This document shows, piece after piece, positions 6,008 to 36,988 of a DNA stretch of 36,988 nt. Under the pieces are notes generated by a model. The model did not search any database. It saw nothing but the letters and a program-made list of their open reading frames with translations, and was not told the origin of the DNA. Numbering within the stretch: the first letter of the stretch is position 1; each line of letters opens with the position of its first letter. Position numbers and translations under genes: made by a program. The stretch is from a virus, in IMG/VR virus record IMGVR_UViG_3300036845_000699, positions 1 through 36,988 of that record; one strand, given 5' to 3'.

Positions 6008-7749
6008 TCGACGTCGCGAATCTTTCCCGCGCCGAACTCGACCTCGTTTACCGCTCGTTTCAGGACCACGCCGCATTCTGCAGAAGTTCGCTTACAGTCG
6101 AGACCGAGCAAAAGGCCCTTGTGCCGATGATCCTCTCGCCCGGCCAGATCCGTCTCAACGACGCGATCAAGCGGCAGCGCGCGAAGGGCGTGCCGGTGAG
6201 ATTGATCTATTTGAAGTCGCGCCGCATCCACGCGACCACAGGCACGGCGGCGCATTTCTTCCATGCGACTGCGTTCGCGGCCGGCGTGCACACGGCCGTG
6301 ATCGCGCACGATGACGTGTCGACGCAGAACATCTACGCGATCTACAAGCGCTTCCTGAACCTGTACAAGCCGTTTGCCGGCGTGATCCGGCTGCCGCCGC
6401 ACCGCCCGCGGCCGAACAAGATCATCTTCAAGTACGGGGATGAACCCGAGTCGAGCTTCATCCAGGTTCATACGGCGGGCTCCGTCAACTTCGGGCGCTC
6501 GTTCCGGCTGACCAATGTCCACTTCTCCGAGTTCCCGTATTACGAGCATCCGGCCGACCTGCTTTCCGCCGTCATGGCAGCGGTGCCGAAGACGGCCGAC
6601 ACGACCGCCGTCATCGAAGGCACCGCGAAAACCATCGGCGATGCCTTTCACAAGCTGTGGCAGCAGGCGATGGATCCGGCCTCGGAGTCAGACTGGGTCG
6701 GCCTGTTCATGGGCTGGTGGGAGCACCCCGGCAACCGCATGCTGCCCAGCGTTGCGCGGGATCGCTTCATGGACTCGCTCTCGCGCGAGGAGCGCGAGCT
6801 GCAGGGCGACTTCAACCTGTCGCTCGAGCAGCTGGCGTGGCGGCGCTGGACCGTCCAGAACGACTTCGCGGGCGACGTGGTGCGGTTCCGGCGGGAGCAC
6901 CCGGCGACGCCCGAGGATGCGTTCACCGCGTCGTCGCGGAACCGCTTCAGCGTGCCGCATATTCAGCGGATGCCAATTCAGCGGGACGCGCTCGCGGGCG
7001 AACTCGAGATCGATCCTGTCGGCGTCGAGAACCGCCTGATCTTCCGCCCTGGCGAACGCGGCGCGCTCCGCGTCTGGAAGCGGCCCGAGAAGGGGCGGCT
7101 CTATGCGTGCGGCGCCGATTGCGCGCAGGGGCTCGACGTCGGCACCGAAGGCGGGCAGTCGGATCCGGATTACTCCTGCGGCCAGATGCTCGACCGGGAC
7201 ACGGGCGAACAGGTGGCCGTGCTGCGCGCGCGCATGATGCCAGGCGAGACCGGGCGCTACATGGCGGCGTTCTGCCGCTGGTACAACATGGCGCAGGTCT
7301 GCGGCGAACGGAACCCGGGCGGCGGCGGCGTCTCGATGCTCGAGGCTGTTCTGAATTCCGGATACCCTTCCAGCCTGATCTACCACCGCAGCGTGACACC
7401 CGATCAGGATCCCCAGATACGGGGAGATCGCATCGGCTGGGACACGTCCGGCGTGTCGCGGCCGCTGCTGATCGGCTACCTCGACGAAGCCATCCGGCGG
7501 GGCGCGATCGCCGTGCGCGATCCGATCACCCAGCAGGAACTGCTGACATTCGTCATCAGCCCGCGCGGGAAAGCGGAGGCGCAGGCCGGCTGCCACGACG
7601 ACACGGTGATTGCACTCGCGCTGGCGATCGTGGTGATAATGCGAATGCCGCGGCCTGTGAACCGCGAGACCGTCGAACGGCCGGAAGTGAGGCGGTACGG
7701 CCAACCGCGGCCGGATGACAGGCGCGGACAGAATGTGAGGGTGCGATGA
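5929..7749 (+). CDS. Terminase large subunit (ATPase and nuclease)
   Basis: The packaging motor that pumps DNA into the procapsid and cuts it. Counting from ATG 5929: a degenerate Walker A region lies at about 95-104 (LKSRRIHATT), Walker B at 194-202 (L-T-N-V-H-F-S-E-F), and a coupling-motif-like E-G-T-A near 230. RNase H-like nuclease acids follow: D397 (GADCAQG), E460 (GERNP) and D557-D558 (CHDDTVIALALA). Length (about 590-606 residues) is normal for the family. The start is uncertain: 5929, TTG 5965 (AGGAG 12 bases upstream) or ATG 5974; a later start would shorten the overlap with the zinc-ribbon gene. The stop overlaps the next ATG. Confidence 0.92.
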   Translation: MRRSMDAGDAHSLPEMRELAEVTRTVIDVANLSRAELDLVYRSFQDHAAFCRSSLTVETEQKALVPMILSPGQIRLNDAIKRQRAKGVPVRLIYLKSRRIHATTGTAAHFFHATAFAAGVHTAVIAHDDVSTQNIYAIYKRFLNLYKPFAGVIRLPPHRPRPNKIIFKYGDEPESSFIQVHTAGSVNFGRSFRLTNVHFSEFPYYEHPADLLSAVMAAVPKTADTTAVIEGTAKTIGDAFHKLWQQAMDPASESDWVGLFMGWWEHPGNRMLPSVARDRFMDSLSREERELQGDFNLSLEQLAWRRWTVQNDFAGDVVRFRREHPATPEDAFTASSRNRFSVPHIQRMPIQRDALAGELEIDPVGVENRLIFRPGERGALRVWKRPEKGRLYACGADCAQGLDVGTEGGQSDPDYSCGQMLDRDTGEQVAVLRARMMPGETGRYMAAFCRWYNMAQVCGERNPGGGGVSMLEAVLNSGYPSSLIYHRSVTPDQDPQIRGDRIGWDTSGVSRPLLIGYLDEAIRRGAIAVRDPITQQELLTFVISPRGKAEAQAGCHDDTVIALALAIVVIMRMPRPVNRETVERPEVRRYGQPRPDDRRGQNVRVR

Positions 7750-17359: not shown

Positions 17360-18280
17360 ATGTTCATTCGCACACTATTCCCCGATCTCTACCTGCAGAG
17401 CATGTTGCCGGCGATCGATGAAGTCGTCATGACGAAGTACTCGCAGTTCCCCGACGAATTCTCCGAGGTCTACCGAATGGAGTCGTCCTCGCGCTCGATC
17501 GAGCAGACAACCGAGGTCACGGGCTTCGGCCAGATGGCGGTCGTGCCGGAAGGATCCGACACGCGCTATGACGAGGCGCTGCCGGCCTTCAACAAGACGT
17601 ATAACCACGCGCAGTACTCGCTCGGGTTCCGCGTGACCAAGGTCGCGATGGACGACGACAAATTCGGTGTCGTGCGTAAACTCGCGACGGAGCTGGGCCG
17701 TTCGGGCAAGGAAACGAAGGAAGTGACAGCCGCCAACCCGTTCAATACCGGCTTTACCTCCGCGACCGGCCCGGACGGCCAGCCCCTGTTCTCGACCGCG
17801 CATCCGCTGATCGGCGGCGGCGTGCAGTCGAACCGCCTCGCGTACGCGACCGACCCCGACGTGACCTCGACGCAGCTGGCGCTTACGCTCATGCGGACCG
17901 CCGTCGATCACCGCGGCAAGCGGCAGCGCATTCCGCCGAAAAAAGCCATCTACCCGCCGCAGCTCGAATTCATCGGGGCCGAGCTGCTGGGCGGCGTCGA
18001 TCGCCCGGACACGGCGAACCGCGCGATCAATGCGTTCCGCCGGCGCAGCGGGTTGCCGTCGTTCGATACCTGGATGGTCTGGGACTACTTGACGGACCCC
18101 GACGCCTGGTTCATCGAGGGCGACGTGCAGGACACCGAACTCCGCTTCTATAACCGCGAGCCGTTCAACACCGTCCACGACATCGACTTCGATTCGCGCT
18201 CGGTCAAGACCGCGGGCTGGATGCGGTTCTCGGTTGGTTTTAACGGTTTTTACGGCACTGTGGGCATCCCGAGCAGCTAG
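17360..18280 (+). CDS. Major capsid protein
   Basis: A 306-residue protein after scaffold and decoration-like genes, with a strong AGAGGAGACACATG start. It resembles the Mu gpT-type HK97-fold capsid family: F-P-D-L-Y-L, then Y-x-x-F-P-D-E-F, an E-x-T-E-V-T-G-F-G segment, a long helix over 100-125, then F-S-T-A-H-P-L near 140-146 (that motif recurs in this family), and P-D-A-W-F-I-E-G-D near 246-254. Its strong Shine-Dalgarno fits the need for high expression. It would form the icosahedral shell. Confidence 0.8.
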   Translation: MFIRTLFPDLYLQSMLPAIDEVVMTKYSQFPDEFSEVYRMESSSRSIEQTTEVTGFGQMAVVPEGSDTRYDEALPAFNKTYNHAQYSLGFRVTKVAMDDDKFGVVRKLATELGRSGKETKEVTAANPFNTGFTSATGPDGQPLFSTAHPLIGGGVQSNRLAYATDPDVTSTQLALTLMRTAVDHRGKRQRIPPKKAIYPPQLEFIGAELLGGVDRPDTANRAINAFRRRSGLPSFDTWMVWDYLTDPDAWFIEGDVQDTELRFYNREPFNTVHDIDFDSRSVKTAGWMRFSVGFNGFYGTVGIPSS

Positions 18281-21781: not shown

Positions 21782-24700
21782 GTGGGCTACGAGCGCAAGA
21801 ATGTACAGCTGCTCGGAGGCGGGTTCAACATTTTACCGCCCGTCGACAAGGTTCCCATCACCGACTACCTGCTCGCGCAGAACTGGCGTTCCGATGCGCT
21901 GGGGCGGCTGATTTCCCGCGCGGGCTACCCGAAGCAGTTCGCGATCGCGGGCGCAGGGATCGCGCACAGCGCCGGCGCCGCGGGCGGTCCCGCGAGCCCT
22001 TACTACGTCGGCTGCAATTCGTCCGTCACGGATCCGGCGTCGAGCGTCTACTTCGACGGCGACCCGACCGCAATCGCCACCGGCTTTGACGGCAACCGCA
22101 TCGCGTTCGCTGCGCAGAACGATTACATGTACGTGATGAATCGCGGCGCGCAGGGCAGGCACACGCCGAACCCGGCGCCGGGTATCCCTGCATGGCAGCC
22201 GTGGAACATCCCGGCCCCGCCGGCCAGCCCGACGGCCGCGCCGAGCGCCACCGGACCGGTCGATGCGAGCGTCACGTACACCTACGCCTTCGAAGCCACC
22301 TATACCGACACCAGCATCGCGGCGGGCGCGCAGACAGTAACGCCGAATGACGTGACGAGCATTTCGGTGGGGATGCGGCTCGGGATTTCGCAGGCGGACT
22401 ATTCGAACTACGAGATCGTCACCGTGACGGCGGTCACCGCCACGACCTTCGACGCCGTCTTTGCTCGCGCGCATCCCGGTCCGACCATCCTGATCGCCTA
22501 TTACGACTACGTTCACAGCCTGACGATCGCGGGCGTCACTTACTCGTTTGTTCAGGACGGCATCACCCAGGCCCAAATTCCGCAGGTCATGGCCTCGCTC
22601 GCGGGGGCGGATCCGAACTGCGCGGTGACCTATTCCGGCTCAGGGCAGGATCTCGATATCACTCCCATCGTGCAGAACACCCTGATCGCGGTCTCGGGCT
22701 CGGGCGGCAACCCGGATGCCACCCTCGGCGCAGGCGATCTCAGCAATCTGCCGAACGGCACCTACCAGTACTATCTGACGTTCATGAGCGCGGACTTCAC
22801 GCTCGAGTCGAACGCCAGCCCGGTTTCGGCGCCCGTCACGACGACGGGGACCGAGTCGATTACGGTCACGATTCCGACGACACCGCCAACACCCAACGAC
22901 GCGCCGACCGACCCGCGCACCGGCTTTGTCAATATCTACCGTACGGGCGGCACGCTCGGGCAGGCTTACCGCGTGGGCTCTGTCGCGTCGACCGTGGCGA
23001 GCCCGGCGACCACCTTCGTCGACAATGTGCCGGACCTGCAGGCTACGAACAACGGCGTGACAATGCCGCTCACGAACGACGGGCCGCCGGCCTGCGCAGG
23101 AATGATCGGGCCGCAACTCGGCCGTCTGTACGCCTGGTCGACCGAGGCTCATCCGAACCGCGTGTATTACACGCCCGCGAACAAGCCGCAGTACTGGTCG
23201 ACCGACGAACAGGTGGGCGACTGGTTCGACGTCGGCCTCGACGACGAAGCGATCGTCTGGTCGACGATCCACACCAACCTGCTGATTTTCTACAAGGAAC
23301 GCTCGATCTGGATGCTGATCGGCGATGCGGTGGGCGGAACACTCGAGCAGGTCTACGACGGCATCGGGCTCGACAACGCTTTCGCGCTCGCGCCGGCGGG
23401 CCAGATCGATTATTTCATCGGACCGAACGGCCTGTACCTGTTCGACATGGCCCAGGTCCATATCATCGCCGCGGACGTTCTGCCGCTCTTCAACCAATCC
23501 ATCACGAACGCGGGCGTGCTGACGCCGCCCGGCTGCGTGCTGCCGGGCTCCGCATTCAATTCGCGGTCGACCGCGTCCTATGCGATCGCGCTGGGGCACG
23601 CGATGGGCCGGCTCTACATCTCCTACGCCGAACAGGGCGGCGATTATAACCTGCTCGTCTTCGACGAGGGGCCGGAACCGGAGCGCAACGCTTACATCGC
23701 CGCGCGCCCCGGCCGCTGGTTCTACCACCGCAATGCGCTTGACCGCAGCCACTGCGCCGGCGGATTCTTCGGCTTCTTCTTCGATGGCGCCGCCATGATC
23801 GGGCTGACAGGCATCGAGGGCGGCAAAGCGCAGGGGCTGTCGATCGCGGACTTCCGCCAGTTTCTGCCGACCGACCATCAGGAGCAGCCGTCGACGGGTC
23901 CCGCGATCCCGGGCACGGTCGACATCGAGTGCGTTTACCAGTCGCACTACGAGGACTGCGGGCTGCCTGACAACGACAAGGTATTTCTTGAGATCGCGAT
24001 CGACTTCGAGTTTGCCGAGTACGCCACGGCGAACGTGTACCTGAGCTTCAATAACGGCACGGTGGCCGCCGTGCTCATCGGCACTCTCGCGGCGGGCGCG
24101 CGGCGCACGCAGAGCATCCAGTTCGACGCCAGTTCTTTTCCCGGCCTCGCGGAGCAGAGAGACGACGGAGTACTGGCGCGGAATGCCTCGGTGTTGATCG
24201 ATGTCGACGCGGGCGGCGTCGCCATCCTCCACAACGTTTACGTCTTCTACTACGCCGAGGCGCGGCTCGGGCTCGTGGCTTCGACAATTCCAACGGACCT
24301 CGGGATCGGCAAGGTCAAGGAGTGCAAGGAGCTGCAGCTCGATATTTCGAATCCGACCGGCGGCGTCTCGGTAATTGTCGCGTCCGATCTGCCGGGCAAC
24401 GCGCTCGCGTCGCGCCAGACGCCGACGGTGGCTACGATGGGCGCCGGCGTGCGGGCGATCATGAAGTACCCGTTTTCGACCACGCAGGGGCTGCTGTGGC
24501 AGGTTTCGATGACCGGCACGGCGCCGTTCCGGCTCTACTCGGCGCGGCTGCTGATGCGGGTGATCGGCACTTACGTCGAGGGCTACGAGTCGGTCGACGG
24601 CTTCATCTGGGATTCCATGCAGCAGGATCTGGGCGACCCCGACACCAAGACGCTCGATCAGCTGCGCTTCGAGATGGATTCGGACGGCGCCGTTTCGGTC

Positions 24701-25366
24701 GACCTCCTGACCGATCTGCCCGGCGAGGCGTTTGCTTCGCGCGGCACGTATGTCCTGACGACCGGGACAACCGGTCGCGCCTGGGTAACGGTGCCGCTCC
24801 CGGGCGCGATCGAGGGGCGGTCTGTGCAGCTGCAGGTTACGGGGCCAGCCGGCTACCGGCTCTACACGGTGCAGGTCCGCTGGTTCCGCATCGGGCGCTA
24901 CCTCGCGGCGACTACGCCATCCGGCAATAACGATGCCTTCAACACGCTCGAGTTCGACTTCCTGTCCGAACGGCGAAAGATGTTCAAGCGGCTCGAGATC
25001 GACATGCGCGCCGACGATCTGGTGACGATGTCGGTTATAACCGACCAGGACTCGACGGGCGCATTGACGGCGATGTACTCGCCCGGCCTGAGAACGGTCA
25101 ACGGGCGGGCGACTCTGCTCGTTCCGCTGCCTCCGGGCATCCGCGGGCGCCTGCTGCGCGTCGGGCTCACCTCGGCGGCGCCCGCGAGGATTTACCACAT
25201 CCGGGTCTGGACGCGCGTGCTCAGCGATCCGGCGGCCGTGTGGCAGTGGGAGGATTTCCCGCTCGAGAATTCCGACGTCCTGCCGACGTGGGCTAACCTC
25301 GTCGCCGACGGCACGCCGCCGAACTGGGAACTGGCCGATCTGGACTTTGCCGTGAGCAGTTCGTGA
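21782..25366 (+). CDS. Large tail nozzle/hub-like protein, 1194 aa
   Basis: GTG 21782. The first 650 residues contain W-R-S-D-A-L-G near residue 37 and, from about 450 to 580, a segment (YYTPANKPQYWSTDEQVGDW, then FDVGLDDEAIVW, then I-F-Y-K-E-R-S-I-W-M-L) that I associate with podovirus tail nozzle or stabiliser proteins of the P22 gp10 or T7 gp12 type. The last third carries three related beta-rich repeats starting near residues 844, 956 and 1066 (each has a strand K-x-x-x-L-x-x-[DE], later a loop, then Y-x-x-x-[VL]-R/L). It likely forms the tail tip to which spikes attach. Confidence 0.7.
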   Translation: MGYERKNVQLLGGGFNILPPVDKVPITDYLLAQNWRSDALGRLISRAGYPKQFAIAGAGIAHSAGAAGGPASPYYVGCNSSVTDPASSVYFDGDPTAIATGFDGNRIAFAAQNDYMYVMNRGAQGRHTPNPAPGIPAWQPWNIPAPPASPTAAPSATGPVDASVTYTYAFEATYTDTSIAAGAQTVTPNDVTSISVGMRLGISQADYSNYEIVTVTAVTATTFDAVFARAHPGPTILIAYYDYVHSLTIAGVTYSFVQDGITQAQIPQVMASLAGADPNCAVTYSGSGQDLDITPIVQNTLIAVSGSGGNPDATLGAGDLSNLPNGTYQYYLTFMSADFTLESNASPVSAPVTTTGTESITVTIPTTPPTPNDAPTDPRTGFVNIYRTGGTLGQAYRVGSVASTVASPATTFVDNVPDLQATNNGVTMPLTNDGPPACAGMIGPQLGRLYAWSTEAHPNRVYYTPANKPQYWSTDEQVGDWFDVGLDDEAIVWSTIHTNLLIFYKERSIWMLIGDAVGGTLEQVYDGIGLDNAFALAPAGQIDYFIGPNGLYLFDMAQVHIIAADVLPLFNQSITNAGVLTPPGCVLPGSAFNSRSTASYAIALGHAMGRLYISYAEQGGDYNLLVFDEGPEPERNAYIAARPGRWFYHRNALDRSHCAGGFFGFFFDGAAMIGLTGIEGGKAQGLSIADFRQFLPTDHQEQPSTGPAIPGTVDIECVYQSHYEDCGLPDNDKVFLEIAIDFEFAEYATANVYLSFNNGTVAAVLIGTLAAGARRTQSIQFDASSFPGLAEQRDDGVLARNASVLIDVDAGGVAILHNVYVFYYAEARLGLVASTIPTDLGIGKVKECKELQLDISNPTGGVSVIVASDLPGNALASRQTPTVATMGAGVRAIMKYPFSTTQGLLWQVSMTGTAPFRLYSARLLMRVIGTYVEGYESVDGFIWDSMQQDLGDPDTKTLDQLRFEMDSDGAVSVDLLTDLPGEAFASRGTYVLTTGTTGRAWVTVPLPGAIEGRSVQLQVTGPAGYRLYTVQVRWFRIGRYLAATTPSGNNDAFNTLEFDFLSERRKMFKRLEIDMRADDLVTMSVITDQDSTGALTAMYSPGLRTVNGRATLLVPLPPGIRGRLLRVGLTSAAPARIYHIRVWTRVLSDPAAVWQWEDFPLENSDVLPTWANLVADGTPPNWELADLDFAVSSS

Positions 25367-25874: not shown

Positions 25875-25888
25875 GCGAGCGAGCATGA
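25870..25888 (+). repeat. Bridging five-codon ORF, second copy of 15-base repeat
   Basis: CATGAGCGAGCGAGC at 25870-25884 matches 18934-18948 exactly. It encodes MSERA; its TGA (25886-25888) overlaps the tailspike ATG (25885-25887), giving an ATGA at both ends of the junction. Confidence 0.7.
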
Positions 25889-28260
25889 GCGTGAATCAGG
25901 TTATCGGACCGGCGATCCTCGTCACGGGCGCGCTCGACGATCTGGCGAGCGGCGGCCAATGGTCTTCGCTGTCGAACGCAAACTCGCTTTTCGTCGTCAG
26001 GATCTCCACAGCGGGGGCGCCGGATCAGTTCGAGTGGTCGCAGGACCAGCCGTATCCGTGGTCTGCGGGCTTCAGCGCGCCCGTTGCCATCACGGGCGCA
26101 GCGCAGCTGCTCGCCGCCGGCGTCACGGTCACTTTCGCCGCGACGACGGGCCACGCCGCGGGCGACACCTGGCTGATTCAGGTCGTGGCGAACAGCCTGC
26201 TCGACGGGAAATTCCGGCAGGGCGGACACGGGGCGATCAGCGTACCGCTGCAGGAAGAATTACGCAAGACAATCCGAGTGAGCCACTTCGGCGCGGTGGG
26301 CGATGGCATCGCGGACGACACGGCGGCCATCAACGCCGCGCTCGCCTATGCCGCCGCTTACAAGTCGCCCAACTCGACCATCGGCGGCCATGTTTACCTT
26401 GGCCGCGGGGTGTTTCTGGTTTCCTCAACCATCACCATTCCGTTCGGCGTGCAACTCATCGGCGAGAGTACATTCGCTTCGATCCTCATGGCCTCGGCCG
26501 ACTTCCCGTCGAGCGCGTGGAATTCCTTCGTCGTCAGCTTTCCCGGGTTTTTGTTCCCCTCGTTCGTGGCGAACCAGTACGGGTCGGGTCTCGTGGACGT
26601 GCAGATCAATTGCGGGACCGGGGCCGCGCACATCTCGGGTATTCAACTGGTCGGGCTCGAAGAAACGTGCCGCCTCGAGCGCATCTCCATCACGAACTAC
26701 ACCGATTACGGGGTCTATGCCTACAGCATCAACAATGCCGTCATCAACGTGAACGCGCACAACCTCTGGATCCTCGGCCGCGGAACAGCCTACAAGTCGA
26801 TCGTTCTCCAGGGCGCGGGCAGCCGCGTGCGGTTCTCCGATATCACGGTTGCCGGCATCGCCGATGTGCAAAACACCTACCCGGGCATCACGCTGATCCT
26901 TTGCTACGCGGTCAAGATCAGTGAAATCCATCCGGAGGTTTGCCCGGTCGGCATCTATGTCGTCGCCAGCTTCGGCATCTCGATCGATACCGTGTACGGC
27001 AACCCGAGCGTGGCGAGCTGCGTCGACATCGATCCGGTTCTCTATCCGCTCTGGACCGTCGGCGTGGACTACGTGGCCGGTACGGACGTCGTTTCATACA
27101 ACGAGCTGATCTATATTTGCGCCGCAGATCACACTGCGAGCGCCGCGAATCAGCCGCCCGACGCGGCTTACTGGACTCCCTACACCTCTTGGTCTTCGGC
27201 GGCCACCTACCTGCCGGGCGACATCACGACCGAGACCGGGCAGCAATATCTCTGCATCGCAGTGGCGACGGGCAACGCGCCGACGGATGCGACTTACTGG
27301 CGGACCTACATCGGCCCGGGTCAGTCCACATCGGGAGGGATCCAGGTAAAGACGATTCACGCCGCGGCCGCCCCCTATGCCGTGCGCGACTGGCGCAGGT
27401 CCGCGTTGAACGCTCTTGCAACTCCGTGGGTCTCGGGCAACGGGTATACGTTCCAGTCGCAGGTCATATGGCGCGGCATGACCTACATGGCAATTCAGGA
27501 ACCGGCCCTCTGGTCGAGTGTGACGGCTTACGCGGTCGGGGACATCGCTTACACGGGCGTGCTGGGCTACGGCGCGGTGGTTTATATCTGCATTCTGGCG
27601 AACACGAACCAGACGCCCCCGAACGCGACCTACTGGAGCGTCTTTTCCGCCCCTCCGGATTCGACGACAGTAACCGGATGGTGGCTCGCGGCCTATTGCG
27701 CATTCAATCTGGTCGATCTGTTTCCGGACGCCAACACTTTCGCCCACGTCATCGGATTCGCCAATAATACGGCCTTCGGGTTCGATCCGGCTCTCGACAG
27801 TTTCGGCCCGGGGACGGCCGTTACGATCAAGGGAGGATCCGACAGCCTCAGCAGCCCCAATGTAGGGATGGCGATGCGGCGGAACGCACCCTCGAATTAC
27901 TGCGGGATCAACTTCCCAGGTGTGGCGGCGGATATGTTCCTCGGCATGGAACCCGGCACCGACGACCTGATCATCTCGACCGGAAACGCCGCTTACCCCG
28001 CCATCCGGATCCGGGTCGTGCAATCCGGCGGCACGCATGTGTACGGCGGCGCGCTGACGCTCGACGTCCCTCTCGCAGTCGCGGACGGCGGCACCGGCGC
28101 TGCGGACGCGGCCACCGCGCTCGCGAATCTCGGCACGGACGCGGCGGCGTCCGTTCCCGGCTGGACGGTAGCGCTCGCGCCGCTGACGCCGACGGGAACG
28201 GCCGGATCGATGACGGTCAGCGCAACCGGGCGGGTGACCGCGTACACGGCGCCGACGTAA
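25885..28260 (+). CDS. Tailspike with pectate-lyase fold and CBM-like modules
   Basis: A 791-residue receptor-binding protein. Residues 1-120 are an N-terminal particle-binding-like part. At 133-150 lies S-H-F-G-A-V-G-D-G-I-A-D-D-T-A-A-I-N, the signature of the Pectate_lyase_3 right-handed beta-helix family, which depolymerises surface polysaccharide. Three CBM5/12-like modules follow inside the helix region, at about 389-433, 434-475 and 542-587, each with W-x-x-x-x-x-Y-x-x-G-D/T-x, a Y-I-C or Y-L-C strand and A-Y-W or T-Y-W at the end. The C-terminus has A-V-A-D-G-G-T-G-A-A-D-A-A-T-A-L-A, a tail-fibre motif. ATGA overlap with a five-codon bridging ORF. Confidence 0.85.
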   Translation: MSVNQVIGPAILVTGALDDLASGGQWSSLSNANSLFVVRISTAGAPDQFEWSQDQPYPWSAGFSAPVAITGAAQLLAAGVTVTFAATTGHAAGDTWLIQVVANSLLDGKFRQGGHGAISVPLQEELRKTIRVSHFGAVGDGIADDTAAINAALAYAAAYKSPNSTIGGHVYLGRGVFLVSSTITIPFGVQLIGESTFASILMASADFPSSAWNSFVVSFPGFLFPSFVANQYGSGLVDVQINCGTGAAHISGIQLVGLEETCRLERISITNYTDYGVYAYSINNAVINVNAHNLWILGRGTAYKSIVLQGAGSRVRFSDITVAGIADVQNTYPGITLILCYAVKISEIHPEVCPVGIYVVASFGISIDTVYGNPSVASCVDIDPVLYPLWTVGVDYVAGTDVVSYNELIYICAADHTASAANQPPDAAYWTPYTSWSSAATYLPGDITTETGQQYLCIAVATGNAPTDATYWRTYIGPGQSTSGGIQVKTIHAAAAPYAVRDWRRSALNALATPWVSGNGYTFQSQVIWRGMTYMAIQEPALWSSVTAYAVGDIAYTGVLGYGAVVYICILANTNQTPPNATYWSVFSAPPDSTTVTGWWLAAYCAFNLVDLFPDANTFAHVIGFANNTAFGFDPALDSFGPGTAVTIKGGSDSLSSPNVGMAMRRNAPSNYCGINFPGVAADMFLGMEPGTDDLIISTGNAAYPAIRIRVVQSGGTHVYGGALTLDVPLAVADGGTGAADAATALANLGTDAAASVPGWTVALAPLTPTGTAGSMTVSATGRVTAYTAPT

Positions 28261-28291
28261 ATGCATAAAAGGCCGCTAAATGCATAAAAGG
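28258..28291 (+). repeat. Duplicated start region, TAAATGCATAAAAGG twice
   Basis: TAAATGCATAAAAGG occurs at 28258-28272 and 28277-28291, offset by 19 bases. The first copy contains the tailspike stop and opens an eight-codon ORF (28261-28287). The second copy carries the start of the GNAT-like gene (28280). It looks like a small tandem duplication of a start region; the same ATGCATAAA also begins a short ORF at 2880. Confidence 0.85.
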
Positions 28292-29158
28292 TCACCCGGG
28301 GCCATCGAGATCCGGCCTGGATTCCCGGCTTGGGCATGGCCGCTGGCTTACGACTGGGCGCAGAAGACGCGCGGCCAGATCGCCGACGACTTCTTCCCGG
28401 CCACCCCTGACGCCTTTGTCGAAGACTACAGCAGGCGGTTCCGATCAGCTTGGACGTACGGATTATGGAAAAACGGATCACTCGGCGGCGTCATCATCTT
28501 CGAACCGGCTTCGCCCGTGGTGGCTACCACCCACATTCTGCTGTCGAAACGGCTGTGGGGAATCCCGCCGGCGTGCCCGCGCCACGCCGCGCGGCTGGTC
28601 TTCGAGGCGCACCCGGAGCTGATCCGGCTGCAGGCTTTCGTACCAATCTGGAACCGGCTCGCGATCGCGCTGGCGAAACGGCTCGGCTGCACAGTCGAAG
28701 GCGTGCTGCGCAGCGCAACGACGCGCGCCGGCCAGCCTGCCGACGCGGTGCTGATCGGGCTGACACGGGCGGATGTTCTGGGCGACGCCTTCGGGGAGGT
28801 AAGCCGCAATGGGTCTGAGTCTCGGCGGATCATACGGCCAGACTACGAGCAGTTCGACCGGCAGCAGCACGACCAGCCAGAAGAACGCCTACGCGCCGGG
28901 CCAGACGGCGGTGCAGGGTCAGACGGGCACAACGCTATCGCGGGATCTGGCGGCGGCGAACGCGGGCACGCTGTCGCCGGGCACGACCGCGATGGAAACC
29001 AACGCGGCGGATCAGATCAACAAGACCTCGTCGGGGCTGACGGACAGGGTAAACCAGTTCCTCGCGCAGCGCGGATTCGGAAAAAGCGGCCAGACTGGCC
29101 AGACGGCGCTGCAGGGCGAACTCGGAAGAGAAAGCCAACTCGGAACAAACGCGGCTAA
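28280..29158 (+). CDS. GNAT-like protein with overlapping read-through tail
   Basis: Residues 1-176 resemble phage GNAT-type acetyltransferase-like proteins: an N-terminal helix-rich part, a strand (L-G-G-V-I-I-F-E), a segment with L-W-G-I-P-P-A-C-P-R-H-A-A-R-L-V-F, then the buried strand and A-L-A-K-R-L-G-C-T-V-E-G-V-L. Such proteins sit in tail or lysis regions of podoviruses; the acetyl-CoA loop is not clear. After residue 176 the frame runs another 116 codons over the next gene in a different frame with low-complexity Gly/Arg/Asp sequence. The ancestral stop was probably lost near 28808. Confidence 0.65.
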   Translation: MHKRSPGAIEIRPGFPAWAWPLAYDWAQKTRGQIADDFFPATPDAFVEDYSRRFRSAWTYGLWKNGSLGGVIIFEPASPVVATTHILLSKRLWGIPPACPRHAARLVFEAHPELIRLQAFVPIWNRLAIALAKRLGCTVEGVLRSATTRAGQPADAVLIGLTRADVLGDAFGEVSRNGSESRRIIRPDYEQFDRQQHDQPEERLRAGPDGGAGSDGHNAIAGSGGGERGHAVAGHDRDGNQRGGSDQQDLVGADGQGKPVPRAARIRKKRPDWPDGAAGRTRKRKPTRNKRG

Positions 29159-29333
29159 CTTCGCGGGCATGCAGACCAACCTGAATCAGCAGAACCTGCT
29201 CGCCGCGCTGAACTACGCTTTCACGTCTCTCGGAACGACTGCCGCGAGCAGCGGGGTCAGTTCCGGGAAAGGAACCGACTGGGGAGTGGGCGCGGGCGTT
29301 AGCGCCTCCGTCCCCATCCCGGGGCTGGGGTAA
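28809..29333 (+). CDS. Internal virion-like protein, 174 aa
   Basis: A Ser/Thr/Gly/Gln-rich protein (Y-G-Q-T-T-S-S-S-T-G-S-S-T-T-S-Q near residues 9-24) with helices further on (A-A-N-A-G-T, N-Q-F-L-A-Q-R-G-F-G). It matches a type often placed between tail and ejection genes in podoviruses. AGGTAAGCCGC precedes the ATG. Its first 350 bases are also read in another frame as the GNAT-like extension. Function unknown; possibly part of the ejected core. Confidence 0.6.
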   Translation: MGLSLGGSYGQTTSSSTGSSTTSQKNAYAPGQTAVQGQTGTTLSRDLAAANAGTLSPGTTAMETNAADQINKTSSGLTDRVNQFLAQRGFGKSGQTGQTALQGELGRESQLGTNAANFAGMQTNLNQQNLLAALNYAFTSLGTTAASSGVSSGKGTDWGVGAGVSASVPIPGLG

Positions 29334-29638: not shown

Positions 29639-31201
29639 ATGGGAAGCTTCCCCGCTCTGCCGTCAGGCAACAACCCCGCGCTCGGCGCCGCAGCCGGCTA
29701 CGCCTCGAGCGCGGCGTCTGCGTACAACGCCATGCAGTCGGCTAAAAATCAGCAGGCGATCCGGGATCAGCAACGAAAGGACAAGGCTGCGGCCGACTAC
29801 CAGGCGGGACTACAGCGGGATTTTCAGGATCAGCTGGAGCTGCTAAAAATGGGCGCGGTGCCGACGCAAGTCTACCCGAATGGGCCGCCACTGCCCGGAC
29901 GACCGACGCTCCAGAGCCCTGAGGCGAACCCGGCTGCACAGGGCGGCGGTCCGACTATCACTGATCCGCAGGGCAATCGCCAGTACATACCGACCGAGAG
30001 CGAGAAAGACTTGCGGTCCGGTAAAACCTTCATTCCGACGGGAGGGCTGGCGTCGGCGCTCATAGCCGGCGGCGCGTGGGACGGCATAACCCCGATGACC
30101 GCAGCCCACTCCCACGATCTCCTGATGTCGCTCAATGAAGCCCAGCCGAAAGGCGACGGGTGGGAACTCGATACTTCGGGAAAAATGGTCGACGCGAATG
30201 GCAACCCGGCGGCGTTCTGGAAAAACAAAAACGGAAAGATCATGCCGTTCGACGGTTCCGGGACAGCTCAGTCCGGGCAGCCTGGCGGCGGAACACCCGG
30301 CGCCGCACCGGGCGGCCCATTCGATTTGTCGTCGAACGGCTACGGGCCGAACCTCTCCCGGATGGCCGCGCAGCCCGGCGCAGCACAGCCTGCGCAGGGC
30401 GGCGGCGGCCTGCGGTTCGCCCCTGCGGAAAAGCCCGAGAAGCCGGACGTCTCGCAAATCGTGCCGGGGCAGGTAGGCCCAAACGGAGGCCTGCTGATCT
30501 ACGACAAGAACACGCAGTCGATGAAGGAAATACCACCGATCCCCGGCAGCAAAGGCGTCCTGACGGCGGACCAGGAGGACCGCAGCGAAGACCGGAAGGT
30601 AAGACTGCGCGAAGCCGAAGCCCGGCTAGGGGACGCGGCAACCGCGCGCGAGGCGAGACAGGCAGATGCGCAACAGGCGCGAGAGAATCAGGCCGCGCAA
30701 AATCACGAGGCGGCCGGCCTCAAAAAACAGGCCATGCAGGCAATGGCGCAGGCCTACCACGATGCGGCAACGACGCCATCGAACGGAACATACTACGAGC
30801 CCCGGTACGTCAACGGGGTTGTAGTCTCGGCGGGCCAGCCCAAAACGATGCCCGATGATCCGCAGCAGAGGGACGACGAGATCAAGCGCCTGAAAACTCT
30901 CGCGAAGGGATACGAGCAGACCGCAAAGACCCATCAGGACGAGCAGGAGCGGATCGAAAAGGCGCGCGGGTGGGGCAAGTACGCGGCCCCGCAGACGGCG
31001 CCCGCGCCGCCGGCGCCGCCCGCGCAGCGCGGCGCAGCACCGGCTGCGAAGGGCACGGCGGGAACGAACGGCAAACAGCCCGTCACCATGCAGCACATCC
31101 GCAATTACGTGCAGGCGAAGAGAGCGGAGGGAAATCCCAACTTCAGCGAAGCGGACGCGATCCGCGAATTCAAGAGCTACGGCTATCCGATCGGGAAGTA
31201 A
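29639..31201 (+). CDS. Internal virion/ejection-like protein, 520 aa
   Basis: Starts directly after the previous stop (TAAATG). Residues 1-70 form an Ala-rich helix followed by a coil (QQAIRDQQRKDKAAADYQ). The middle (80-250) is Pro/Gly/Asn-rich with beta elements, and residues 310-400 are a long charged coiled-coil-like helix (R-K-V-R-L-R-E-A-E-A-R-L, then A-A-Q-N-H-E-A-A-G-L-K-K). The end is Pro/Ala-rich. Position, composition and the giant gene that follows suggest an internal core protein ejected with the DNA. Family not recognised. Confidence 0.6.
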   Translation: MGSFPALPSGNNPALGAAAGYASSAASAYNAMQSAKNQQAIRDQQRKDKAAADYQAGLQRDFQDQLELLKMGAVPTQVYPNGPPLPGRPTLQSPEANPAAQGGGPTITDPQGNRQYIPTESEKDLRSGKTFIPTGGLASALIAGGAWDGITPMTAAHSHDLLMSLNEAQPKGDGWELDTSGKMVDANGNPAAFWKNKNGKIMPFDGSGTAQSGQPGGGTPGAAPGGPFDLSSNGYGPNLSRMAAQPGAAQPAQGGGGLRFAPAEKPEKPDVSQIVPGQVGPNGGLLIYDKNTQSMKEIPPIPGSKGVLTADQEDRSEDRKVRLREAEARLGDAATAREARQADAQQARENQAAQNHEAAGLKKQAMQAMAQAYHDAATTPSNGTYYEPRYVNGVVVSAGQPKTMPDDPQQRDDEIKRLKTLAKGYEQTAKTHQDEQERIEKARGWGKYAAPQTAPAPPAPPAQRGAAPAAKGTAGTNGKQPVTMQHIRNYVQAKRAEGNPNFSEADAIREFKSYGYPIGK

Positions 31202-34200
31202 ATGGCGCAGGAACTCTCCACTCCCGCGCTGAATCCCGACACCTTCATGGCTGCGCAGGCGGCGCGGCCGGCGCCGGAACTCAATCCCGATACGTTCATG
31301 GCGGCGCAGGCCGCGCAGCCCGTCGCTGCGCAGGCTGCGGGCCCGCAGCCGGAAGCCGGCCGCCGCGATCCCGCGCAGCCGAAGGCCTACAACCTTCTGC
31401 CCGATCCGGGCCAGCCGACCGCGCAGTCCCGCTGGACGCAAACACCGATGTTCTTCGGGGCGACGGCCGACGCGCCCGAGGGCGCGACCGGGTACTCGGA
31501 CTATGACGCGAACAAGGGGCAGGGGCTTATCACGGTGAACCCGGGCGAGGGCTCTCTCGCGCATCCCGTCAATCAGTCGATCGCGCGTCACGAGTCCGTC
31601 CACATGCTGCTGCACCAGGCATTCGCGGACTACTCTCTGGATCAGCCGAGCAAAAGGGGGAACTGGCGGGCAGTGCTCAACGACCCCGCCGTGAAGCTCG
31701 CGGGAGACCGCGTGCTGAAGATCATGCAGGCGAACGGATACCGCGGTGAAAGCGATACTGAGCTGCCGGCGTACATGGCGGTGTTCTCGAATGCCGACAC
31801 CGAATGGACGAAGGGCGTCCCGATCGATCTGCGGAACAAGTACGTCGCCGCATTCACGAAGGCGCTGGCGAAACAGAACCCGCAGACGGCCGCGAAGTAT
31901 CTGCGGATGTCGGCTGGAGCGCCAGTCGGCGAGGGGCCGTCGCTGAATCCTGTTGATGAGCAACTGGCGCAGCCGGGCCTGCCTGACGTCGCGCGGGCGA
32001 AGTATCCGTTCATTGGCAAGAACGTCGTAATGATCCCCAAAAAAGGCGGGGAGTTCGGAAGCGAGGGCTGGCCTGCTGGCGAAGCCGGTGATTCAAACTA
32101 TCCGCGCCCGAAGGGAATTCCCCTGAATGTGCCCGGCATCGAGTACGACCCGAAGGGCAGCGCCGACGATCTGGCCGGGGAGGTTCTGCACACCGATCAG
32201 TTCGCCAATGAGGTGCGCGACCGGCTGGCCAAATCCTTTACCCCCGATCAGATCAAATATCTATCCCGGGCGAGCCTCGACTACGGCGCAGGCAAGGATA
32301 CCCCGCAGAATATCCGGCTGCGTAACGGAACTGATTCATTCATCCGCGGGGCTTTGCTCGGCCAGTGGCCCGCCAAAGACGTTGCCGGAATGAAACTGAG
32401 TCCCGGGCAGCAAGCTCAACTCGAGAGCCTTAAACGGTACATGCTGACCGGGCAGAGACCGCCCGCGCAGCCCACCGCTGCGCCAGCTTCACCCCCGCCG
32501 CTGCGCATGAGCGACCTCGACCCCGCGACGGTCGACCGGACGACAACCGCGCACGCGGCAACGCTGGCGAGCATTGTCCTGAATCCCACGCGGAGGGCAG
32601 CCCTTCCGACGCCCACCCCCGGAATGCAGTTTGCACCCCCGTCGTACCAGATTCAGGCGCCCGAGCCGGAACCGCCGAGGCCTCCGATGGCTGCTGGACC
32701 CGTCATGCAGCGCGTTCCGGGCACGGAGACTTACCGGGACCGGCGAGGCGCGTATCTGAACGTGCCCGGATCGAAGCCCGAAGGCGAACAGATTCGGGGC
32801 GGCGGCCCGACCTTCAACGCGCCCCACGTCTCGCCGGTCCGCAGAGGACTCGAAACCCCGATTATCAAGCCCGAGGACATCGATGAGTTCTTCCCATTTC
32901 TGACGGGCTTTTTCCGCTTGCACGCCGGCGTCCTCAAAGCGGCCGCGGGAATGACTTCGCCCGAGAACATCGCGATCGCAGCGGCGACCGCCGGACTCGG
33001 CGCGATACCGGGACTGACGGCGAAGATAGTAGCCGCCGGACTCAGCACATACTTCGCAACTCAGGCAGGAAAGGCCCTGCTCGACAAATACCCTCGGATC
33101 AAAGAGCTGGTTAAGGCGAAGGACTGGCAGGGCGCGCTCGAACTGGGCGGCGGCACCCTGGCGGATGCGGCGATGTTTTACGGTGCAGGGAAGCATGCGC
33201 TCGACACCGCTCTGCTCGAGGTGCCCCGCGAAATTGCACTCAAGCGGCAGCGCGCGGCGGCGAAGGCGGCGCAACCCGAACCAGAGCCCGCCGCCACCAT
33301 CACGGGTCGCGTGCCGTACCGGCCGAAGGCCGCGCCGCCGGCGCCCGAGATCGAGAAGCCGGCGAAGCAACCACCGGCCGCGCAGCCTGCGCAGCGCATC
33401 GCTGCGGAGCCTGCGAAGCCGCCGACTGCGCCGCAGGTTGAGACCGCTCCGGTGCCGCTGAAGCCGTTGCACGAGATGTCGCCGAACGAACTCGACGAGG
33501 TCATCAAAGAGGGGACCGGCGCAGACGCGAAGATGCTCCGGGAGTTCTTCGGGGAAGACGGGGCGAAGAAATATATGCGCCTCGAGCGCAAGTCAAATTC
33601 GAGCACCGATCCGCAGGGCGCGGACGCGGCGCAGGCGGAAATCGAGCGCATGCAGGGCGAACTCAGCGAGCCCCAGCGCAACCGCCTGTTTGGAATCGAC
33701 CAACCCGAAACACATGACCTTGAGGCCGCCCGCAGCATGCGCAACGCTCTCGGACGCATCGACCCGACGAGCCCCGCCACTCTCGGCGAGTCGCTCAAGT
33801 GGGCCGTTTCGCGGTTCGACCCGCAGAGCCCCACTGCCAACCCCGAAGCCTATGCGCAGCTGCGTCGCGGCGCGGAGATCGCGCACGAAAACGGCTGGAA
33901 CACCGCCGAAGTCATGGCGCATGCTTACGAGGGAGCGGTCGGCCGTTTCAAGGATCCCGAGGATGCCGCCTACGTGCTGGAGCGGTTCCGCCGCGGTGCC
34001 GGTAAGCCGCCCGCGCAGGAGCCCGCGCAGCGCATCGCTGCGGAGCCTGCGCGTGTCCCGCCAGAGCCACCATCTGTTACCGCTGCGCCACAGGCCGAAC
34101 CGAAACGACAGCGGGGCGAGAAGTACTCGGACTACCAGAAGCGGCTGCGGGCAACCGCGCCGACTGAGGCGGCGCCCGAAGCGCCCGCTGCGCGGCTTGG

Positions 34201-36988
34201 ACTCGATCAGGCCGCAGCTCAGTCCATCCTTGAGCGGCTGGACGCAGCCGGGAAGAAATCGGAGCAATGGCTTCGCGACAACGGCTTCACGGGCGGCGGA
34301 TCGCTCTCCGCAAACAGGATTCTCGATCCCGAGGCGCTGTTCCATCTGACGCGCGCAGTGGCCGGCGACGTCGCCCGGGGCGTGATTACCGTTCGGGACG
34401 CGGCGCAGGCGATACTCGACAGGCTGCGCGACAAGTTCGACGATCTGCCGGCGCTCGGCGCGGTCGAGGACCGGATTCGGGAGCACATAGCCGACCTCGC
34501 GCAGCCGCCCGAGGCACCCGCGCAACGCATCGTTGCACCGGCTGCACCGGTGGAGACGGGACTGCACGGGCCGATCTTCCGCGAGTACTCCGGCAAGCCC
34601 AGGGAGGCGATCGCGAAACTCGAGCGGGAGGAGACCGGAGAAGTACCGAGCGTCTGGCATCATCCCGAACTCGGCTGGATCGATCTGATCTGGGGCAACA
34701 AAAGCGGTGGCCTCGATCACATCATCGCGAAACACGTGAAAGGCCAGGGCGACCTCAAACTGGATGACCTGGCCGAAATGATTCCAGGCATGCGCGTGGT
34801 TTCCAATGATGGGCGCACGGCAAGACTTGAAAGTCAGACCCACGAAGCCGGTGTGCGCCTCGACTACGACGGGAAGACCAAGCACTGGCTGATCACTGCA
34901 TATGAGAAGCCGGCCTCCGGAACCAATAGCCGCGTTCCCGGAGCCCCTTCGGGTGCTGGACCGGCTCCCCCAGCAACCGGCGACTCAGATATGCCGCCTA
35001 CCGGAGGGTCTCCTCTCGTCTCCGGATCCCCGCAGAGCGCTCCGCAAGGTGACGGTCATCCACCGCCAGACGGCATACAGTCCAAGCATAGCGGACCGAC
35101 TGATCGCGGTCCCGTCACTCTCGGCATGGGCCTCGGGGCCTTCGAGCCGTTCCTGCGCGAATCGATCGAGGACATGAGGGCCATGAAGGCCAAGCGCGAC
35201 GCGGCGCTCGAGGAGCTCGAGCGTTCGAAGATCACGCCGGGAGAGAAGCACTGGGGCGAACAAGTCCGTCATTACTTCACCGGCGAACGGGACCTGTGGG
35301 CGGCACGGGCGAATCAGGGCATCGCCAAGGTCCGGAAGCTGACCTGGCCGTCCCGCAACCGCCGCACTCGCGTCGACACGCTGGCCGAAGCGATCGCGAT
35401 CGCGCGGGAGTACAAAGGCAGGCCGGAGGAACTGAAATCCATCCTGGGCGGCTACCATCCGGATCTGGCGCAACTCGCGAAAAATGATCAGGCCGCATAC
35501 GACCGCGTGATGGACCGGGTACTGGCGCTGCGGCCGGCGATCGAACGGGCGCTGCAGCCGATGGATCCGGCAATGAAGGCCGTCGACCAGTTCTACACGA
35601 ACATGGCTGAGATGACGGCCGCCGAGGGCAAGCGCGTCGGTAACCTCGACACAACGTGGAATCCGGAGACGTATGTGCCGCACGTGCTGCATCCGAAGGG
35701 CGAGGGCGCACTGCCGACGTTGCGGAAGGCGGCGGGGCAGGCGATGGGCGGCCGGATCGGCAAGTACTTCGGGTTCTCGCAGGAACGCAGCTTTCCGACG
35801 CTTCTCGACGCGATCATGCACGACGTGATTCCGAAGACGATGAACATTCACGATGCGTTCACGATTCAGCAAGATGACTTCGCGCGGTCGCGGGCCACGC
35901 GGCTCCTCGAGGACCAATTGAGAGCGAGCAACATCGGCAAGTACACCGTTCGAAACAATGCACCGGAAGGATCGGTGCCGCTCGCACCGCAGTCGAAGGA
36001 GTTCCTCCAGATCGTGCCCTACGATACAGGCGCGATCGATGAGCAGGGACAGCCAGTTCTGGAGCACGCCGAAAGGCGACTCTACGTGCCGAAGTTCATC
36101 GAACAGGCGTTGCGGCCGATCACTTCGCCCGACTTCACGACCGAGATTCTGGCAGTACATGCCCTGCGGCTCTCGCAGGCCGCAACCAAAGCCGCACAGC
36201 TCGGGCTGTCATTCTTCCACGCGACCACCGAGAACTACATGGCCCTCGCCAATATGGGCGTGAAGGGCTACGTTCAGGCCCTGAGGGCGTCCCGCGACTC
36301 GCCGGAGTTTCTGGCCGCTGAGCGGGATTTGATTGCGCACGGCGGGACCACTTCGATTCAGGGCAACACCGTCGAGGCATACCGTGGCTTGCAGCCGGGA
36401 TCCATCCCCACCTGGGGCGACATCTGGCGCCAGAACGCCGCGGTCAAGATCATGGACGACGCGGCGCATGCGATCAGCGATTTCACGTTCGCCAACCTGC
36501 AGCGGCGCTTCAAGGTGACCGATTACCAGCTGCACGTTGCCGGCTGGATGGCGGAGCATCCGAGCGCGTGGGGCCGCGATGTGCGGATCGCGAAACAGGG
36601 CATCGCGAAAGAAGTGAACGCGATCTACGGCGGCCTGCATTGGGAGAACATCGGGCTCAACAAGATGACGGTCGAGATGGCGCGCGCCTTCTTCCTCGCG
36701 CCCGACTGGACGCTCTCAAACGTGTTCAATGTGAAGTACGCGTTCGAGAAGGGGCCGGGCGGCAAGATGGCGCGGATGTTCTGGGCGCGCACCGCCGTCG
36801 CGGGGCTGATTGCCACCCAGGCCGCAACGCTGATGATGAGCCGCGATCCAATCGGTGCGGCGAGGCGACTGAAGACAGATCCGCGGCGGGCTCTGACGCA
36901 GGTTTATCTCGGGAAGGACCCGAATGGTGAGGACGTCTACCAGAACTGGTTCTTCAAGGGAGCGCCGGGCGACTTTATCACCCTGATG
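31202..36988 (+). CDS. Giant polyvalent ejection protein, 3' partial
   Basis: This frame is open for at least 1929 codons and is cut by the window edge. Residues 10-40 hold two copies of LNPDTFMAAQAA. Near 100-230 is a zincin-like region: R-H-E-S-V-H (His130, Glu131, His134), with Glu187 a possible third ligand. Residues about 584-630 are hydrophobic (IAIAAATAGLGAIPGLTA), as in phage ejection proteins. Pro/Ala linkers with P-A-Q-R-I separate domains (for example near 33380, 34030 and 34520). Near 1147-1240 is a barnase/EndoU/colicin-like nuclease domain (WHHPELGWIDLIWGN, then G-L-D-H-I-I-A-K-H at 1170-1178). The C-terminal 400 residues resemble conserved ends of large polyvalent phage proteins. 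It probably enters the host with the DNA. Domain calls are from memory. Confidence 0.75.
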   Translation, partial: MAQELSTPALNPDTFMAAQAARPAPELNPDTFMAAQAAQPVAAQAAGPQPEAGRRDPAQPKAYNLLPDPGQPTAQSRWTQTPMFFGATADAPEGATGYSDYDANKGQGLITVNPGEGSLAHPVNQSIARHESVHMLLHQAFADYSLDQPSKRGNWRAVLNDPAVKLAGDRVLKIMQANGYRGESDTELPAYMAVFSNADTEWTKGVPIDLRNKYVAAFTKALAKQNPQTAAKYLRMSAGAPVGEGPSLNPVDEQLAQPGLPDVARAKYPFIGKNVVMIPKKGGEFGSEGWPAGEAGDSNYPRPKGIPLNVPGIEYDPKGSADDLAGEVLHTDQFANEVRDRLAKSFTPDQIKYLSRASLDYGAGKDTPQNIRLRNGTDSFIRGALLGQWPAKDVAGMKLSPGQQAQLESLKRYMLTGQRPPAQPTAAPASPPPLRMSDLDPATVDRTTTAHAATLASIVLNPTRRAALPTPTPGMQFAPPSYQIQAPEPEPPRPPMAAGPVMQRVPGTETYRDRRGAYLNVPGSKPEGEQIRGGGPTFNAPHVSPVRRGLETPIIKPEDIDEFFPFLTGFFRLHAGVLKAAAGMTSPENIAIAAATAGLGAIPGLTAKIVAAGLSTYFATQAGKALLDKYPRIKELVKAKDWQGALELGGGTLADAAMFYGAGKHALDTALLEVPREIALKRQRAAAKAAQPEPEPAATITGRVPYRPKAAPPAPEIEKPAKQPPAAQPAQRIAAEPAKPPTAPQVETAPVPLKPLHEMSPNELDEVIKEGTGADAKMLREFFGEDGAKKYMRLERKSNSSTDPQGADAAQAEIERMQGELSEPQRNRLFGIDQPETHDLEAARSMRNALGRIDPTSPATLGESLKWAVSRFDPQSPTANPEAYAQLRRGAEIAHENGWNTAEVMAHAYEGAVGRFKDPEDAAYVLERFRRGAGKPPAQEPAQRIAAEPARVPPEPPSVTAAPQAEPKRQRGEKYSDYQKRLRATAPTEAAPEAPAARLGLDQAAAQSILERLDAAGKKSEQWLRDNGFTGGGSLSANRILDPEALFHLTRAVAGDVARGVITVRDAAQAILDRLRDKFDDLPALGAVEDRIREHIADLAQPPEAPAQRIVAPAAPVETGLHGPIFREYSGKPREAIAKLEREETGEVPSVWHHPELGWIDLIWGNKSGGLDHIIAKHVKGQGDLKLDDLAEMIPGMRVVSNDGRTARLESQTHEAGVRLDYDGKTKHWLITAYEKPASGTNSRVPGAPSGAGPAPPATGDSDMPPTGGSPLVSGSPQSAPQGDGHPPPDGIQSKHSGPTDRGPVTLGMGLGAFEPFLRESIEDMRAMKAKRDAALEELERSKITPGEKHWGEQVRHYFTGERDLWAARANQGIAKVRKLTWPSRNRRTRVDTLAEAIAIAREYKGRPEELKSILGGYHPDLAQLAKNDQAAYDRVMDRVLALRPAIERALQPMDPAMKAVDQFYTNMAEMTAAEGKRVGNLDTTWNPETYVPHVLHPKGEGALPTLRKAAGQAMGGRIGKYFGFSQERSFPTLLDAIMHDVIPKTMNIHDAFTIQQDDFARSRATRLLEDQLRASNIGKYTVRNNAPEGSVPLAPQSKEFLQIVPYDTGAIDEQGQPVLEHAERRLYVPKFIEQALRPITSPDFTTEILAVHALRLSQAATKAAQLGLSFFHATTENYMALANMGVKGYVQALRASRDSPEFLAAERDLIAHGGTTSIQGNTVEAYRGLQPGSIPTWGDIWRQNAAVKIMDDAAHAISDFTFANLQRRFKVTDYQLHVAGWMAEHPSAWGRDVRIAKQGIAKEVNAIYGGLHWENIGLNKMTVEMARAFFLAPDWTLSNVFNVKYAFEKGPGGKMARMFWARTAVAGLIATQAATLMMSRDPIGAARRLKTDPRRALTQVYLGKDPNGEDVYQNWFFKGAPGDFITLM

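What the first reader, a model, noticed from the sequence alone, without database searches (positions are those of the whole stretch)
31202..36988. Giant polyvalent protein pairing a zincin motif with a toxin-like nuclease
One frame of at least 1929 codons holds an HExxH motif (HESVH, residues 130-134), a hydrophobic segment, repeated P-A-Q-R-I linkers, and a barnase/EndoU/colicin-like nuclease domain (WHHPELGWIDL, then GLDHIIAKH near 1170-1178). A long C-terminal region is typical of phage polyvalent proteins. This suggests a multi-domain weapon delivered into the host at ejection, with protease and RNase activities in one chain. The domain combination and order may be new.
Basis: partly seen in the sequence, partly recalled or inferred. 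Interest (0 to 1): 0.8.

Follow-up and report, generated by a model that had tools for sequence, protein, structure and literature searches.

The report
Phage ejected multi-domain protein, swappable toxins
This is the front nine-tenths or so of a giant phage protein, probably packed in the virus particle and injected with the DNA, whose relatives keep the same tail end but carry different enzyme or toxin modules in the middle (here an RNA-cutting one); it is a new member of a known class, the phage polyvalent proteins.

Summary
In detail: one frame (31202-36988, 1929 codons, cut by the contig end) has HESVH at 130-134, a mildly hydrophobic stretch at 589-620, three PAQRI linkers and a nuclease domain. 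The nuclease is real: Pfam PBECR1 (E 7.9e-10, above cut-off), with the expected His1178/Thr1232 pair and phage homologues such as Bordetella BPP-1 Bbp10. The zincin is unproven: HExxH plus a downstream E-x-x-A, but no family, PDB or usable fold match. The only relative with that domain is 93% identical, so conserved histidines prove little; the other relatives lack it at this position. The main finding is elsewhere. The last ~630 residues belong to an unannotated family: about 40 good relatives in viral contigs and three in MAGs. Its predicted fold matches proteins labelled 'Large polyvalent protein associated domain-containing' (Foldseek E 4e-11). In the same chain other members carry zeta-toxin kinase, ddrB-ParB, histidine-phosphatase or methyltransferase domains. 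Between this gene and its closest relative, PBECR1 is replaced by a zeta toxin, and one breakpoint falls in a PAQRI linker. Polyvalent proteins with MPTase and PBECR1 domains were described in 2017 (PMC5512222), so this is a new member of a known kind.

The parts
31202..36988 (+). Polyvalent protein gene, 1929 codons, truncated by the contig end (expected about 2070 aa)
   Evidence: length estimate from complete relatives
31382..31951 (+). N-terminal HExxH domain (residues 61-250), putative zincin, found otherwise only in L002 (93% identical)
   Evidence: fold not resolved
31589..31603 (+). HESVH motif, residues 130-134
   Evidence: chance 4.8% in shuffles
31760..31777 (+). ELPAYM, Glu187: candidate third zinc ligand of the E-x-x-A type
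   Evidence: inferred from motif only
31976..32593 (+). Variable slot A (residues 259-464): unrelated sequence in the closest relative L002, function unknown
   Evidence: DNA match to L002 stops at residue 258 and resumes at 465
32594..33340 (+). Shared scaffold part 1 (residues 465-713), containing the Ala/Gly-rich hydrophobic stretch 589-620
   Evidence: 78% DNA identity to L002; weak match to L006 and L016 N-terminal regions
33341..35101 (+). Variable slot B (residues 714-1300): holds PBECR1 here, a zeta-toxin kinase in L002, ddrB-ParB in L003, ddrB-ParB plus PBECR1 in L006
33371..33451 (+). Linker 1 (first PAQRI), direct-repeat copy
   Evidence: 81-nt repeat, 70% identical to linker 2
34007..34087 (+). 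Linker 2 (second PAQRI), direct-repeat copy; aligns with the joint in L002 (80% DNA identity, E 9e-15)
34517..34531 (+). Third PAQRI linker, just before PBECR1
34568..34933 (+). PBECR1 nuclease domain (residues 1123-1244; Pfam stretch 1152-1236), predicted catalytic His1178 and Thr1232
35102..36988 (+). Conserved C-terminal core (residues 1301-1929, incomplete), mostly helical; fold matches phage proteins annotated as large polyvalent protein associated domain-containing
29639..31201 (+). 520-aa protein whose stop codon directly precedes the giant gene's ATG; homologue in the same place in L002, L003, L006, L012, L014, L015, L019
28809..29333 (+). 174-aa protein, probable small internal/ejection protein (inferred), conserved upstream in 10 relatives
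28280..29158 (+). Acetyltransferase-like gene, conserved upstream of the giant gene in 11 relatives
   Evidence: (phrog_4470, E 0.004)

Best explanation
The gene encodes a phage-type polyvalent protein: a virion-packaged chain probably ejected into the host with the DNA. Two scaffold parts (residues about 465-713 and 1301 to the end) are kept between the closest relatives, and the C-terminal part across the whole family; they probably serve packaging and delivery. Effector modules sit between and before them. Here the module next to the C-terminal core is a PBECR1 endoRNase, likely using His1178 and Thr1232, which would cut host RNA (messages, tRNA or defence RNAs) early in infection. The N-terminal HExxH domain may be a zincin that cuts the chain into separate units, as proposed for other polyvalent proteins. 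Related phages exchange the module for another (zeta kinase, ParB-like nuclease and others), at least once with a joint in a repeated Pro/Ala-rich linker. Shown: domain identity of PBECR1, the shared C-terminal core, different modules in relatives, gene order. Inferred: packaging, ejection, RNase activity, proteolysis, recombination at linkers.
For: PBECR1 above the curated cut-off; homologues in BPP-1, Atu_ph08, PBC5, Itty13 and BcepMigl giant proteins; conserved His/Arg and Thr/Ser columns. Core shared by about 40 strong relatives; core fold well predicted (pLDDT mostly 75-97) and matching phage large polyvalent proteins, E 3.7e-11. Swap shown by L002 zeta toxin, L003 ddrB-ParB, L006 ddrB-ParB plus PBECR1, His_Phos, methyltransferase, zeta and PBECR1 in others. 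DNA identity with L002 falls away over slots A and B. Gene follows terminase, portal, capsid and tail-spike genes and a conserved three-gene run, similar in order to bbp12-bbp11-bbp10 of BPP-1, which PBECR1-bearing Bbp10 closes. The class was defined by Iyer et al. 2017 (PMC5512222).
Against: No virion proteomics or activity data. The core matches no Pfam, PDB-sequence or NCBIfam entry and the structural matches have moderate TM-scores (0.42 or less). BPP-1 Bbp10 shares PBECR1 but not the core, so the gene-order parallel is analogy. The zincin part is weak.
Confidence: 0.8

Rival explanations
1. The HExxH domain is a chance motif in an ordinary structural or binding domain, so the protein has nuclease but no protease activity.
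For: Chance of HExxH is about 5% in this composition; no family or PDB match; AF2 pLDDT 41; no MPTase-PolyVal similarity; no other relative has it at this position.
Against: HESVHMLLH followed by E-x-x-A and preceded by GLITVNP resembles a zincin core and aligns in register with M78 peptidases, though weakly. Strong purifying selection. MPTases are the most prominent hub domain of this protein class (PMC5512222).
Confidence: 0.5
2. The PBECR1 domain serves virus-virus conflict or counter-defence (for example destroying CRISPR RNAs) rather than attacking host messages in general.
For: Proposed as an alternative in PMC5512222; domain exchange in relatives fits an arms race.
Against: Nothing in the sequence names the substrate.
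Confidence: 0.3
3. The protein is mainly a structural ejection scaffold and the enzyme-like modules are inactive passengers, as suggested for the PBECR domain of phage Mu MuF.
For: PMC5512222 reports an inactive PBECR in Mu gp30; L016 lacks the His (Gly in the column); the family includes relatives of about 1150-1200 aa in which no enzyme domain was found (two scanned with Pfam).
Against: In the window both predicted catalytic positions are kept, and repeated presence of different enzyme domains suggests use.
Confidence: 0.15
4. The apparent domain swap is a chimaeric assembly.
For: All close relatives are metagenomic contigs.
Against: PBECR1 next to the core recurs in window, L006, L016, L017 and the MAG fragment L063; zeta toxin recurs in L002, L011 and L018.
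Confidence: 0.04

Closest known systems
Phage-type polyvalent proteins (Iyer et al. 2017, PMC5512222)
   Same: Very large chain, disparate enzyme domains, PBECR1 and perhaps MPTase, location by virion genes; relatives carry ddrB-ParB, InPase, zeta-like kinase, methyltransferase and possibly ART (weak match)
   Different: C-terminal core is not matched by any Pfam LPD model; HExxH domain is not matched by MPTase-PolyVal; a histidine phosphatase module, not named in that paper's main text, appears in this family
Bordetella phage BPP-1 Bbp10 (2052 aa)
   Same: PBECR1 (39% identical over 1118-1245); last of a run of internal-virion genes ahead of tail fibres
   Different: No detectable similarity to the C-terminal core; no match to the HExxH domain
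Helicobacter prophage jhp1044-type mosaic proteins
   Same: PBECR and ddrB-ParB domains with extensive domain rearrangement among orthologues (PMC5512222)
   Different: Other scaffold, four PBECR copies; no core match in these records
N4-type virion RNA polymerase
   Same: Giant injected protein; the paper reports MPTase and PBECR1 fusions; one weak Foldseek match to a virion RNA polymerase (E 0.7)
   Different: No RNA polymerase domain found here

Membership tests
Phage-type polyvalent protein | Large protein combining domains of unrelated activity | tested here: met
   PBECR1 plus conserved core in the window; two unrelated enzyme domains in one chain in relatives such as L006, L011, L017, L018
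Phage-type polyvalent protein | Encoded among virion/late genes | tested here: met
   Downstream of terminase, portal, capsid and tail spike; ATG directly after the stop of the preceding gene
Phage-type polyvalent protein | Shares a known polyvalent-associated domain | tested here: met
   PBECR1; core fold matches LPD-annotated phage proteins; no Pfam LPD hit by sequence in the window
Phage-type polyvalent protein | Packaged in the virion and injected | not testable with these tools
   Needs virion proteomics
PBECR1 nuclease | Pfam PF18809 above the curated cut-off | tested here: met
   39.6 bits against 27.6
PBECR1 nuclease | N-terminal helix then four or five strands | tested here: met
   Helices at 1171-1181 and 1187-1193, strands at 1198-1202, 1206-1210, 1214-1222, 1227-1235; pLDDT only about 50-77
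PBECR1 nuclease | Active-site His (or Arg) in the helix and Thr/Ser in the last strand | tested here: met
   His1178 and Thr1232 line up with His/Arg and Thr/Ser in 6 phage homologues
PBECR1 nuclease | RNase activity | not testable with these tools
   Needs an assay
Zincin-like MPTase | HExxH motif | tested here: met
   HESVH 130-134
Zincin-like MPTase | Third ligand Glu on a following helix | tested here: inconclusive
   Glu187 in ELPA, motif only
Zincin-like MPTase | Zincin fold | tested here: inconclusive
   AF2 pLDDT 41 with two sequences
Zincin-like MPTase | Match to a known metallopeptidase family | tested here: not met
   No Pfam or PDB match; profile comparison to MPTase-PolyVal absent, to M78 probability 3-5%
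Zincin-like MPTase | Catalytic residues kept in divergent relatives | tested here: inconclusive
   Only L002 has the domain, 93% identical

The most novel reading that the evidence does not exclude
The two scaffold parts form a dedicated delivery chassis in phages known almost only from metagenomes (possibly of Acidobacteriota), whose effector slot is exchanged as a cartridge by recombination between repeated linker DNA, so that closely related phages inject different toxins; the HExxH domain is a new clade of zincin that releases the cartridge.
Probability: 0.25. Interest if true: 0.65.

Novelty: new member of a known kind. Interest (0 to 1): 0.42.

Why it matters
If right, this family gives a natural series in which one virion protein keeps its delivery part and changes its payload. 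It would let one test which part is needed for packaging and ejection, which payloads matter against which host, and whether the linkers are recombination points. It also offers an unannotated core family worth a Pfam-type model.

Tried and rejected
AF2 on residues 61-253 with two sequences: too poor to search with. Searches for more HExxH-domain relatives: viral contigs, phages and plasmids, 396 genomes of the phylum of the Bryobacterales MAG (the weak matches did not keep HExxH). First genome scan with the core found nothing; a broader alignment found three MAGs, but only two of 396 genomes of that phylum carry it, so it is rare there. PDB fold search of PBECR1 plus core: nothing significant. 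Considered the core as a BPP-1-like ejection protein by sequence: rejected. Considered an LPD Pfam link through distant relatives: no hit. No held paper joins polyvalent proteins with the phrase zeta toxin, but PMC5512222 itself mentions zeta-toxin-like kinases.

Full report
What is there. The window is a complete IMG/VR record of 36988 bases, and the finding's frame runs off its end: ATG at 31202, 1929 codons, no stop. The start codon follows directly on the stop of a 520-aa gene. Upstream lie terminase (5929-7749), portal/adaptor (10523-12790), major head protein (17360-18280), a 1194-aa virion protein (21782-25366, weak structural PHROG matches) and a pectate-lyase tail spike (25885-28260).

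The nuclease. Pfam gives PBECR1 at residues 1152-1236 with E 7.9e-10, above its cut-off. tblastn finds the same domain in large proteins of BPP-1, Atu_ph08, PBC5, Itty13, BcepMigl and Helicobacter prophages. In a ten-sequence alignment His1178 (Arg in two, Gly in L016) and Thr1232 (Ser in one) occupy the columns described as catalytic for PBECR domains (PMC5512222). The AF2 model shows helices followed by four strands there (moderate confidence).

The supposed zincin. HESVH and a downstream ELPA are present; chance alone gives HExxH in about 5% and the pair in about 2% of shuffles. The only relative with this domain is L002, 93% identical, where it is under purifying selection (dN 0.043, dS 0.60). 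No family, no PDB sequence and no confident fold were found. Profile comparison aligned the HExxH helix and the strand before it in register with M78 peptidases, but with probability 3-5% only, and not with MPTase-PolyVal. I put it at about even odds.

The C-terminal core. Residues 1301-1929 are shared with a family found by iterated scans of viral contigs: about 40 loci match the core profile at E below 1e-30 (including a few near-duplicates), plus MAG contigs labelled Bryobacterales, Thermoanaerobaculia and Methanoregulaceae. It is absent from 50,697 phage records by tblastn of the full protein. AF2 with 41 sequences predicts a mostly helical fold with pLDDT mostly 75-97 in the core. Foldseek matches it to phage proteins annotated as large polyvalent protein associated domain-containing (E 3.7e-11 and 1.2e-10), to unnamed giant phage proteins, and to nothing solved. 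I therefore read the core as a divergent relative of the C-terminal scaffold of known polyvalent proteins.

Different payloads. The partner domains differ from member to member: PBECR1 (window, L006 and L016 below cut-off, L017, L063 fragment), zeta toxin (L002, L011, L018), ddrB-ParB (L003, L006, L011, L012, L018, L019), histidine phosphatase (L012, L014, L017, L022, L024), methyltransferase (L013), inorganic pyrophosphatase (L051, a distant member), and a weak ADP-ribosyltransferase match (L046). Against L002, DNA identity is 87% over residues 1-258, lost over most of 259-464, 78% over 465-713, lost over most of 714-1300 and 83% over 1300-1847. The one island in the second gap is window residues 935-965, which match L002 704-733 at 80% (E 9e-15). 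In L002 the sequence to the left of linker 1 thus runs directly into the sequence of linker 2. Linkers 1 and 2 are an 81-nt direct repeat (70% identical). The simplest reading is recombination between linkers, or an insertion at one; one pair of sequences cannot decide.

How it probably works. By class (PMC5512222), such proteins are predicted to be packed with the DNA and to act in the earliest phase of infection. The acetyltransferase-like gene, a small 174-aa gene, a 520-aa gene and the giant gene form a conserved run in relatives, like bbp12-bbp11-bbp10 of BPP-1, where bbp12 is annotated internal virion protein. Ejection, RNase activity, its target and self-processing are inferred, not shown.

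Verdict. Observation confirmed. Interpretation partly supported: polyvalent protein and BECR nuclease yes, zincin open, new combination no. Kind: new member of a known kind. The recurrent payload exchange on one scaffold is the more interesting part.

Noticed in passing
28280-29158 and 28809-29333: The acetyltransferase-like frame runs 347 nt into the next gene, and the same frame stays open 215-440 nt in all 11 loci tested. Single-locus chance values are 0.015-0.69, so a true gene overlap is possible but not shown.
   Followed up: partly
25885-28260: Tail spike with a pectate-lyase-like domain plus two CBM_5_12 carbohydrate-binding stretches.
   Followed up: no
31976-32593: Slot A (residues 259-464) is a second variable slot; the L002 counterpart is unrelated. 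The window's stretch has no Pfam match.
   Followed up: partly
L065: A 3190-base contig in a Methanoregulaceae archaeon MAG carries the core; it is probably a misbinned phage contig, not evidence for an archaeal host.
   Followed up: no
L064:7661-11218: A short member (1185 aa, no Pfam match) lies on a 156-kb contig of a Thermoanaerobaculia MAG, a possible prophage and the best lead to a host.
   Followed up: no
L016:3564-9251: Its PBECR1 has Gly where the catalytic His is expected; it may be inactive or have shifted residues.
   Followed up: no
L056:4995-9305 and L061:4791-9158: Distant members carry AHEIGHSLDG, a typical metallopeptidase motif, at residues 488 and 518, different in sequence from the HESVH region.
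   Followed up: no
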